DNA of 64,000 nt. Source: Liolophura sinensis. Its lineage: Eukaryota > Mollusca > Polyplacophora > Chitonida > Chitonidae. The notes under the pieces were generated by a model, which was not told the origin of the DNA, did no database searches, and saw only the letters and a list, made by a program, of their open reading frames with translations. The stretch covers positions 50,083,385 through 50,147,384 of the forward strand of contig NC_088295.1 in NCBI RefSeq assembly GCF_032854445.1, written 5' to 3'. This document shows positions 19,321 to 22,300 of the stretch, piece after piece. How positions within the stretch are numbered: the first letter of the stretch is position 1; the number at the start of each line of letters is the position of its first letter. A program made the translations under genes and the position numbers.

Positions 19321-22300
19321 CTGAAAAAGAATTGTATGTATCATTGAATACTCCTTGCATTTACATTTATTTATCTATCTATTTCATTGTTATTTAACGA
19401 CATACTCGAGTATTTTTCACTAACATGGTGGTCAGTTCTATGAGAGGGGGAAAACAACAGTAAACAACAGCTCTTTGGAAGGTATGTGATCTATGTGTAC
19501 TAGTTAACACTACTGTAGTGGAATCAGAACATTGTTTCCGGAAGCAACTGACTATATATTTTGTGACTGCTGTAATTCATGGACAGAAACAACGGCGTAG
19601 ACAATGATATAAGGTGAAAGTGACTGACCTGCATCTGTAGATGTGACATCTTTCTCCAGGTTAAGCTTGAACTTTGCACAGCTGAGCATGCCCTCCTCCA
19701 CAGTGCCTTTTGAGATTAGCTTTACAACCTCCACAGCTCTGTAAAAAGGGTTTTTATCCTTATTTATTGCACTGTTTGTGCCCTGCACTCATGGCCATCT
19801 AAGATACACAATCTAAGAGTTGTAGGATACCAGATTAATTGATTGATTGGTGTTATACTCAAGAATATTTCATATATGACGGCAATCATTGTGATGGATG
19901 GATGAAACCAATGCTTGAAGGAACCATCTGGCTTATTAAGGCAAATGATGTTCTGATTTTCCCTTACATCACTTAAAATGACAATAAAAAGTGAATTGTT
20001 CTTAATTCTGCAGCCAAGTTAAACTTACAAAGTTGAGCATAATGAACTGGAGACCCCATTTCAACTGTATTACTTGACATTATACAGATCTTTCAAGAGC
20101 ATAATAATAATACCTCCCCCTTCACCCACCTCCTCTAGCTAACCTTGAAGAAACAGCTTTGGTGAGAGACTGATTAAATAGAATGTCATCTCAATTACGT
20201 ACCATCACAAAAGAAGAACTGTAAGCTCTGCTGAGTATTCGTAAAACACATATGCCAGCTTTTTTGTGTTATTAAATACTATGTACCCAAAAAAACGCTA
20301 AATCCAAAATCTGTAAATAAAAATTCTATAAAAATAAAAGATGGACGTGGCAAAAGTATGTAAAAGATTTTTAAAAACCAGTTGTCCAGGCCTATGATTA
20401 CAAACCAGGAGCGCTTTCAAATAGTTTATGAGACATGCCACTGGTATTGTCAGTTTATATTAACATTTTTGTGAGGGTTCCTATTTTCAAAAGTATTAAT
20501 AACACAGAATATTACAGGCTTGTGATATTAAATTAAAGCCTGACCTGAAGGCATTCCAACCAGGCCTTCCACTCAAACTTTGATATTAAACCCTACTGGG
20601 CAGGCATTCTATCTCATCCTTCCATTGTAAGCTTGTGATGTTAAACCATGTTTGATAAGGCATGATATCAAAATGTGGCACCTATCCAACGACCATTTAT
20701 CATGTTACAGCTCTGTGTTAAACCCTGTTTGGAAAGGCGTGATATCAAAACGTGGCACCTATCCAACGACCATTTATCATGTTACAGCTCTGTGTTAAAC
20801 CCAGTTTGGAAAGGCGTGATATCAAAATGTGGCACCTATCCAACGACCATTTATCATGTTACAGCTCTGCGTTAAACCCTGTTTGGAAAGGCGTGATACC
20901 AAAACATGGCACCTATCCAACGCCCATTTATCATGTTTTAATCCCTGTTTGGAAAGGCATGATATCAAAACGTGGCACCTATCCAACGCTCATTTATCAT
21001 GTTTTAAACCCTGTTCGGAAAGGCGTGATATCAAAACCTGGCACCTATCTGTCAGTTAATAACTGTAGAACTGAGGTGATTATTACTTGGTTTGTCCCAC
21101 TCTGTGGCACCTATCCTCAGTCAGTTTATCATTGTACATCTGAGGTGATTATTACTCGGTTTGTCCCACTCTGTGGCACCTATCCTCAGTCAGTTTATAA
21201 TGGTAGAACTGAGGTGATTATTACTTGGTTTGTCCCACTCTGTGGCACCTATCCTCAGTCAGTTTATAATTGTAGATTTGAGGTGATTGTTACCTGGTTT
21301 GTCCCACTCTATAGCACTTATCCTCAGTCAGTTTACCATTGTAGATTTGAGGTGATTGTTACCTAGTTTGTCCCACTCTATGGCACCTATCCTCAGTCAG
21401 TTTATCACTGTAGATTTGAGGTGATTGTTACCTGGTTTGTCCCACTCTATGGCACCTATCCTCAGTCAGTTTATCACTGTAGATTTGAGGTGATTGTTAC
21501 CTAGTTTGTCCCACTCTATGGCACCTATCCTCAGTCAGTTTATCATTGTACATCTGAGGTGATTGTTACCTGGTTTGTCCCACTCTATGGAACCTATCCT
21601 CAGTCAGTTTATCATTGTAGATTTGAGGTGATTGTTACCTGGTTTGTCCCACTCTATGGCACCTATCCTCAGTCAGTTTATCATTGTACATCTGAGGTGA
21701 TTGTTACCTGGTTTGTCCCACTCTATGGCACCTATCCTCAGTCAGTTTACAATTGTAGATTTGAGGTGATTGTTACCTGGTTTGTCCCACTCTATGGCAC
21801 CTATCCTCCGCCTGCTTATCGTTGTATGGGTTAAAGTCTATATCATGTAAGACAACCACATTGGCAGCTGTCAAGTTGATTCCCATCCCACCTGCCCGTG
21901 TGGATAGCAGAAATATGAAGATGTCCTCATGCTGGTTGTACTGGTCAATCATCTGTTGTCTGAAAGGTAAGAATATTAGGCACAGATGTCAGGATTTGGA
22001 GCTTGTTTTTTAAAAGAGCAAACCTTCCGACATTATGTTATTGTGACACAAATTGCCATTCATTGGACATCTAACATGGCTTACAGTAGCCATTCAGAAT
22101 TATGTAGATGAAATAAATGCCAACCACTGTAATAGTAAGAGTTTGAATAGTTGAAAAGTGTTCAACATGTTCTAATCACAAGAACAATGTCAGCGAGGTA
22201 ACATGTACACAGATAATGCATGGCTTCTGCAGACCATTTCTTTTTAAACGGGGATCATCACTGTTGACATCACCGCTACAAGCTACTTAATTTCCGGACT

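What the first reader, a model, noticed from the sequence alone, without database searches (positions are those of the whole stretch)
21041..21959. Tandem array of the SMARCAD1 motif VI exon end together with its splice donor
Seen directly: ten 69-bp units in the intron just downstream of exon 19, each holding the last 32 nt of the exon ([10 protein letters not shown] coding), the AG|GT junction and the first 37 nt of the intron. All copies keep GT; seven keep the exact GTAACA. So one exon end is followed by ten decoy or alternative 5' splice sites at 69-bp steps. 69 is a multiple of three, but the first codon read past the real donor is followed by TAA, so use of any distal donor would end the protein inside the helicase. 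Minisatellites normally arise from non-coding DNA; one seeded across an exon-intron border is unusual and could affect splicing.
Basis: seen in the sequence. Interest (0 to 1): 0.85.

Follow-up and report, generated by a model that had tools for sequence, protein, structure and literature searches.

The report
Exon-end repeat array with decoy donors
In a chiton, the end of one gene segment and the signal that marks where to cut it have been copied ten times in a row just past the real cut site; such arrays are known from lancelets and two human genes, but in this animal they turned up after a fair share of the gene segments sampled, always on the same side.

Summary
Confirmed: on the minus strand, the SMARCAD1 exon that ends in helicase motif VI (21959..21777, donor GT at 21776) is followed by ten further 69-bp copies of its end and donor. 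All ten keep GT and seven keep GTAACA. One correction: each unit holds about 50 nt of exon ([14 protein letters not shown]) and 19 nt of intron, not 32 + 37. The outer 18 exon-derived nt differ from the exon at 5-7 positions, the inner 32 at 0-3. This points to an old duplication re-seeded from, or exchanged with, the exon. Only the first donor keeps the protein; every other gives GQT-R-stop. The genome is the chiton Liolophura sinensis (published as L. japonica). The architecture is that of amphioxus "mirages" and of the human CBS and ABCA7 VNTRs: a new member of a known kind. The surprise is how often it occurs. In 167 exon matches from four protein families, 12 (the finding included) carry such an array at the exon end; no mirror image was found at exon starts. 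Of 97 donor copies found by similarity, 89 keep GT and 71 pair with U1 at least as well as the true donor, so position rather than strength probably decides. No RNA could be tested.

The parts
21777..21959 (-). SMARCAD1 exon coding [16 protein letters not shown]...[16 protein letters not shown] (helicase motif VI end); 183 nt
   Evidence: translation; PDB best match human SMARCAD1 9jao_C 4e-28, 6.1e-117 for nine joined C-terminal exon translations
21771..21779 (-). true splice donor CAG|GTAACA (intron begins at 21776); phase-2 intron
   Evidence: only this donor joins in frame to the next exon ([16 protein letters not shown] aligned without gap to human); U1 duplex -8.0 kcal/mol
21068..21757 (-). 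ten complete 69-bp units, each about 50 nt exon end + 19 nt intron start, donor GTs at 21707, 21638, 21569, 21500, 21431, 21362, 21293, 21224, 21155, 21086
21039..21067 (-). partial eleventh unit that runs into the 66/77-bp array
20639..21049 (-). adjoining 77/66-bp array; its units share the block GATAA...GGATAGGTGCCA with the exon and with the 69-bp unit but not the donor; probably an older, decayed layer
   Evidence: TRF; local alignment to the exon reached by 1 of 1000 (66-bp unit) and 8 of 1000 (77-bp unit) shuffles, to the 69-bp unit by 0 of 500; the middle of the unit shows no homology (85 of 500 shuffles as good); genome search found it at this locus only (2 matches)
21689..21757 (-). 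unit 1 (most proximal): exon-like 21708-21757, donor GT at 21707; exon part -32..-1 identical to the real exon, -50..-33 differs at 7/18
21068..21136 (-). unit 10 (most distal): weak donor CAA|GTAATA
19629..19738 (-). next SMARCAD1 exon, acceptor TTTTTACAG|A ([18 protein letters not shown]...), donor CAG|GTCAGT
   Evidence: alignment to human

Best explanation
A mirage-type minisatellite. A 69-bp stretch over the exon/intron border (last ~50 nt of the exon, first ~19 nt of the intron) was tandemly duplicated on the intron side, grew by unequal exchange and was at least once re-seeded from, or exchanged with, the living exon end. It is mostly a passenger: the spliceosome takes the exon-proximal donor, the first one transcribed and the one at the end of a normal-sized exon, so the mRNA is unchanged. 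Any slip to a distal donor adds GQT-R-stop, with the stop 65 nt or more upstream of the new junction, and should be removed by nonsense-mediated decay. The same process runs at many genes of this chiton, and its products survive on the donor side because extra donors downstream of the true one are harmless while extra exon-bearing acceptors upstream of a true one would be spliced in. Shown: anatomy, gene, frame, sequence step, recurrence, donor bias in the sample. Inferred: use of the first donor, NMD, neutrality, direction of exchange, cause of the bias.
For: Units in register with 10 of 10 GT. The human protein reads [16 protein letters not shown] like the chiton exon, so the exon is the source and the array the derivative. 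The identity step between -50..-33 (5-7/18 differences) and -32..+19 (0-2/51 for units 1, 2, 4, 5, 6, 7; 3/51 in unit 3; 5-6/51 in units 8-10; Fisher p 0.00015 to 0.11) fits re-seeding. No sign that selection holds the decoy donors: columns -3..+6 vary more (0.165) than the rest (0.070). 12 of 167 exon matches have exon-end + donor arrays and 0 of 167 were found to have exon-start + acceptor arrays. Array coverage is about 13-15% of bases 124-353 nt downstream of matches against about 4-6% upstream; nearest the border it is 0.079 against 0.007. 71 of 97 donor copies, found by similarity in 12 arrays, pair with U1 at least as well as their own true donor. [quoted passage not shown]
Against: No RNA was examined, so first-donor use rests on protein continuity alone. 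In human ABCA7 a one-unit-retained isoform does occur and repeat length goes with skipping of the next exon (PMC5954066, passages), so such arrays are not always silent. Amphioxus globin mirages also occur on acceptor sides (PMC3087553), so the donor bias may not be general. The two families added as a replicate gave fewer cases (proteasome 1 of 21, Arf 0 of 38) than helicases (8 of 76) and CCT (3 of 32), so the true rate is uncertain. The identity step could also reflect two separate duplications with different breakpoints. For unit 10 the step is not significant (p 0.11).
Confidence: 0.8

Rival explanations
1. Regulatory poison array: distal donors are used on purpose (by tissue or stage) to send SMARCAD1 mRNA to decay, the array length setting the level.
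For: Every distal donor gives a stop 69k-4 nt before the junction, a good decay substrate; seven decoys pair with U1 at -6.4 to -8.0 kcal/mol against -8.0 for the true donor; ABCA7 VNTR length correlates inversely with expression and directly with exon skipping in people (PMC5954066, passages).
Against: Donor positions are less, not more, conserved than the rest of the unit. The same kind of array sits in unrelated genes (DDX41, CCT epsilon, a proteasome subunit) with mixed frames; in three of 12 the first in-frame stop lies beyond the third donor, which does not look like a shared poison design.
Confidence: 0.08
2. Mutational bias: donor sites themselves are hot spots where tandem duplication starts (for example by co-transcriptional R-loops or slippage at AG|GT), so the donor bias reflects birth, not survival. 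It replaces only the last step of the best explanation.
For: Arrays without exon sequence also crowd downstream of exons (L043, L045, L068, L094, L132; coverage profile). The two human precedents (CBS, ABCA7) are also on donor sides.
Against: Amphioxus has acceptor-side cases too (PMC3087553). By eye the unit ends lie at varied intron distances (6 to 50 nt or more); a shared breakpoint motif was not noticed but was not tested systematically.
Confidence: 0.35
3. Assembly artefact (false tandem expansion).
For: 14x HiFi coverage only (PMC11068029, passages).
Against: Units differ from each other by up to 11 of 69 bases in an ordered way; the array is shorter than 1 kb against 8,347-bp mean HiFi reads; the same structure recurs at 11 other sampled exons.
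Confidence: 0.02
4. An intron being born: the exon was longer and the duplicated AGGT serves as both donor and acceptor (intron gain by tandem genomic duplication).
For: The unit carries AG|GT and the mechanism is documented (PMC3443670, passages).
Against: The acceptor that fits the protein lies at 19739 in unrelated sequence with a normal pyrimidine tract, not in the array; the alignment to human runs across the junction without added residues.
Confidence: 0.03

Closest known systems
Amphioxus 'mirages' (Adh3, globins BflGb6 and BflGb9, troponin C, PGBD5)
   Same: Minisatellite-like tandem duplications over an exon/intron border with AG/GT signals kept in many units; repeat units 10-160 bp; concerted evolution within clusters; said not to disturb splicing (PMC3087553 and PMC3902484, passages seen)
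   Different: Mollusc instead of cephalochordate; here sampled across four protein families at 12 of 167 exon matches and only on donor sides; the amphioxus cases that I saw are described gene by gene and include both sides
Human CBS 31-bp VNTR, c.1444_1467+7(16_21), exon 13-intron 13
   Same: Unit = exon end (24 nt, from the name of the variant) + 7 nt of intron, 16-21 copies (PMC2630376 and PMC1395315, passages seen)
   Different: Shorter unit, polymorphic in people; its effect on mRNA is recalled from Lievers 2001, which is not held
Human ABCA7 25-bp VNTR at the exon 18 donor
   Same: First two bases of the VNTR are the donor GT; one-unit-retained transcripts carry a premature stop and are subject to decay (PMC5954066, passages seen)
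   Different: Unit described there as lying in intron 18; C-rich; very long alleles; effect mainly on skipping of the next exon
Intron gain by tandem genomic duplication of AGGT
   Same: Tandem duplication that carries AG|GT (PMC3443670, passages seen)
   Different: Here the intron already has its own acceptor and the copies lie wholly inside the intron
Internal tandem repeats at exon-intron boundaries of human segmental-duplication genes
   Same: Minisatellites at exon-intron borders that change splicing (PMC2812944, passages seen)
   Different: Variable repeats compared between recent paralogs; described as making novel introns

Membership tests
mirage minisatellites | tandem repeats of minisatellite size | tested here: met
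   69 bp x 11.5, 92% matches
mirage minisatellites | unit spans an exon/intron border of a real gene | tested here: met
   about 50 nt exon end + 19 nt intron; gene confirmed
mirage minisatellites | splice signals kept in many units | tested here: met
   GT in 10 of 10, AG|GTAACA in 7 of 10
mirage minisatellites | concerted evolution inside the cluster, edges diverged | tested here: met
   units 1-7 differ from each other by 1-6 of 69, units 8-10 from units 0-7 by 4-11; step at -33. One haplotype only
mirage minisatellites | regular mRNA splicing undisturbed | not testable with these tools
   no transcript data held
mirage minisatellites | copy-number instability between haplotypes or individuals | not testable with these tools
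   one haplotype-purged assembly
CBS/ABCA7-type donor VNTR | donor of a coding exon lies inside the repeat | tested here: met
CBS/ABCA7-type donor VNTR | length polymorphism in a population | not testable with these tools
   single genome
intron gain by AGGT tandem duplication | a duplicated AGGT is used as acceptor | tested here: not met
   the acceptor that fits the protein, TTTTTACAG ending at 19739, lies 1.3 kb beyond the 69-bp array; cDNA not seen

The most novel reading that the evidence does not exclude
In chitons the growth of tandem arrays out of exon ends and their donors is a genome-wide process: about one in fourteen of the exon matches sampled (12 of 167, the finding included) has been amplified into its own intron, in this sample only on the donor side, at times with decoy donors stronger than the true one. 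These arrays exchange sequence with the living exon, so coding ends and donors evolve in concert with intronic copies. They also form a natural experiment showing that the spliceosome picks the first donor among ten or more equal ones. Where the unit is in frame and open (L056, L092) they hold a ready store of 22-residue protein insertions.
Probability: 0.5. Interest if true: 0.78.

Novelty: new member of a known kind. Interest (0 to 1): 0.62.

Why it matters
How the splicing machinery chooses among equal 5' splice sites is usually studied with one or two engineered competitors. This genome offers natural genes with ten or more near-identical donors in a row, and public RNA-seq of the same species exists (five tissues named in PMC11068029). 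It also suggests a route by which introns grow and exon ends may exchange sequence with intronic copies, and a class of loci where gene predictors that rely on donor strength may go wrong.

Tried and rejected
Selection for decoy donors: rejected, since donor columns -3..+6 vary more than the rest of the unit. A fixed unit end at intron +6 (as in L022 and L023) was considered as a rule and dropped: by eye other arrays end further in, at about +19 to +50 or more. Homology of the whole 66/77-bp unit to the 69-bp unit: only a 28-34 nt block is supported; the middle is not (85 of 500 shuffles as good). A first register was one base off for the 19-nt block (4 of 19 matches); it was corrected and only the latter is used; the ungapped 66/77 counts (5-12 of 20) suffer from the same shift and are not used. 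Relatives of the species: none held, so direction of exchange and age could not be tested on other chitons.

Papers: ten searches. None of the papers they listed was seen to describe mirages in molluscs, judged from listings, abstracts and the passages read. Lievers 2001 is not held; the amphioxus Adh paper was not among the two papers listed and was not looked up by id.

Survey limits: all 76 Helicase_C matches and all 21 proteasome matches were examined, but only 32 of 50 CCT matches and 38 of 107 Arf matches (two tandem gene clusters, single-exon frames and low-scoring rows left out) to stay under the letter limit. The lists of the genome search are themselves lower bounds. The 167 matches include single-exon genes and several exons of one gene (L092, L093, L094), and L029 is the finding itself. 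Match ends are not exon ends; the 19 downstream and 7 upstream hits of the zone test were read by eye, the other rows were not. Donor copies were sought by similarity (at most 6 of 22 mismatches) within the fetched flanks, which favours copies that keep GT.

Full report
WHAT IS THERE. On the minus strand, the exon at 21959..21777 codes [60 protein letters not shown]. Its best solved-structure match is human SMARCAD1 (9jao_C, E 4e-28), and nine joined C-terminal exon translations give 6.1e-117. The donor is CAG|GTAACA with the intron starting at 21776; the next exon starts at 19738 after TTTTTACAG. Just past the donor lie ten more copies of the exon end and donor at exact 69-bp steps. All ten keep GT and seven keep GTAACA. 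A genome search with 271 bases of the array gave five matches, all at this locus (such a search can miss repeats).

WHOSE GENOME. G000 has 609,464,459 bases in 632 contigs. A mitochondrial contig with cox1, cox2, trnD, atp8 and atp6 in a row and the tRNA cluster M-C-Y-W-Q-G-E (protein genes named by eye, and that this order is typical of chitons and some other molluscs is recalled) points to a mollusc. PMC11068029 reports 609.5 Mb in 632 scaffolds for a chiton published as Liolophura japonica (passages); PMC12441733 (whole text) corrects the species to L. sinensis. The window is assigned to that assembly by these figures.

THE UNIT, CORRECTED. The last 18 of those 37 nt, TACAATGATAAACTGACT in the consensus, are a diverged copy of the exon's TACAACGATAAGCAGGCG: 13 of 18 identical in register, matched by 15 of 125,462 other 18-mers of the window. 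In frame they read for example MYNDKLT (units 2 and 10) against PYNDKQA. So the unit is about 50 nt of exon and 19 nt of intron. Where exactly the intron part ends cannot be fixed.

A STEP IN IDENTITY. Against the real exon the ten units differ at 5-7 of 18 positions in -50..-33, but at 0-3 of 32 in -32..-1 and 0-3 of 19 in +1..+19 (Fisher p from 0.00015 for unit 5 to 0.11 for unit 10). A single old duplication would diverge evenly. The human protein reads [16 protein letters not shown], so it is the array that drifted in the outer block, while the inner block was reset by a later exchange with, or a second duplication from, the exon. The three distal units differ more from the real one (7-9 of 69, against 2-5 for units 1-7) and share CAC and (A/G)A|GTAATA. 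The adjoining 77/66-bp array (20639-21049) shares a further decayed block with the exon (8 of 1000 and 1 of 1000 shuffles as good). The picture is of layers, youngest next to the exon. Whether the exon end was ever overwritten from the array cannot be told without other chitons.

CONSEQUENCE OF THE COPIES. Read past the true donor, the frame is AGG TAA, so every distal donor gives GQT-R-stop, with the stop 69k-4 nt before the new junction (65 nt or more), which by the general 50-55 nt rule (recalled) predicts decay. U1 pairing is -8.0 kcal/mol for the true donor and for units 1, 2, 3, 5 and 7, -6.4 for units 4 and 6, and -1.6 to -2.0 for units 8-10; seven other donors of this gene, one of them an uncertain site, span -5.2 to -11.7. 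The donor columns are not conserved beyond the rest: diversity is 0.165 at -3..+6 against 0.070 elsewhere.

NOT ALONE. As a control for rarity I took the 76 Helicase_C matches of this genome (all 76 examined), 32 of 50 CCT matches, 21 of 21 proteasome matches and 38 of 107 Arf matches. Twelve of these 167 matches have an array whose unit is exon end + donor: L022 (DEAD-box; 22 bp), L023 (DDX41 by PDB; 39 bp x 22), L029 (the finding), L048 (98 bp x 2), L050 (122 bp), L051 (37 bp), L056 (66 bp), L065 (50/96 bp), L090 (CCT epsilon by PDB; 109 bp), L092 (66 bp), L093 (60 bp) and L112 (proteasome, 80 bp). By family: 8 of 76, 3 of 32, 1 of 21, 0 of 38; the last two, added as a replicate, are poorer. 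No exon-start + acceptor array was found among the 167. By the automatic zone test self-copies occur in 19 of 167 downstream zones and 7 of 167 upstream zones. One of the seven (L050) is its donor array reaching back; one (L094) carries the acceptor CAG without exon sequence; the other five (L011, L043, L062, L067, L070) lie upstream of the exon in sequence with in-frame stops or before the visible acceptor (for L067 no clear acceptor was seen). Twelve against none is p 0.0005 by a two-sided sign test; leaving out the finding and counting L092 and L093 as one gene, ten against none is p 0.002 (my arithmetic). Tandem arrays cover about 13-15% of bases 124-353 nt downstream of matches and about 4-6% upstream; nearest the border it is 0.079 against 0.007. 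In the twelve arrays I found 97 further donor copies by similarity within the fetched flanks; 89 keep GT and 71 pair with U1 at least as well as their own true donor (the way they were sought favours copies that keep GT). Periods divisible by three: 6 of 12 (L065 taken as 96).

HOW IT MOST LIKELY WORKS. Tandem duplication over an exon/intron border, growth by unequal exchange, re-seeding from the exon. On the donor side the copies come after the true donor, which is transcribed first and closes a normal-sized exon, so they are tolerated. On the acceptor side a copy of AG plus exon start would lie before the true acceptor and would tend to be used. This filter would explain the donor bias; a birth bias at donors is the main rival. 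First-donor use, decay and neutrality are inferred. Amphioxus mirages are reported not to interfere with regular splicing (PMC3087553, passages; PMC3902484, passage), while ABCA7 shows that such repeats can leak and matter (PMC5954066, passages).

KNOWN OR NEW. The single array meets each tested feature of a mirage; two features could not be tested. Human CBS (unit named c.1444_1467+7, PMC2630376, passages; PMC1395315) and ABCA7 have the same or a very close architecture. New here, as far as my ten searches reach, are the mollusc, the frequency, the one-sidedness and the identity step.

Noticed in passing
L056 (G000:C7:23868403-23869534) and L092 (G000:C8:53403900-53406500): Exon-end arrays with 66-bp units whose frame stays open for 327 and 432 nt past the true donor; use of distal donors would insert 22-residue repeats instead of a stop.
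   Followed up: partly
L112 (G000:C13:7541383-7542320), proteasome subunit exon: The true donor AAG|GTTCGT (-4.6 kcal/mol with U1) pairs less well than three of its four found intronic copies (-4.9, -5.9, -6.3); a clean test of position against strength.
   Followed up: partly
L094 (G000:C8:53411650-53412850): A CCT exon flanked by arrays on both sides: a 41-bp array repeating the acceptor CAG upstream and a 28-bp array starting just after the donor.
   Followed up: partly
window 20639-21049: 77/66-bp array next to the 69-bp array, sharing GGATAGGTGCCA and GATAA with the SMARCAD1 exon; probably an older decayed layer.
   Followed up: partly
window 25198-25761, 45673-45933, 49345-49563, 56842-59490: Further minisatellites (53, 42, 22/45 and 79 bp; the last with 33.5 copies); none of these four matches sequence elsewhere in the window at E 0.05, and their relation to exons was not worked out.
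   Followed up: no
G000:C99 (108,685 bp): COX1 matches seven times at about 15.5-kb steps, one of them incomplete: the contig looks like a head-to-tail concatemer of the mitochondrial genome.
   Followed up: no
G000:C1:37680085-37719481: Tandem cluster of 17 Arf-like gene copies at about 2.4-kb steps with near-identical scores.
   Followed up: no
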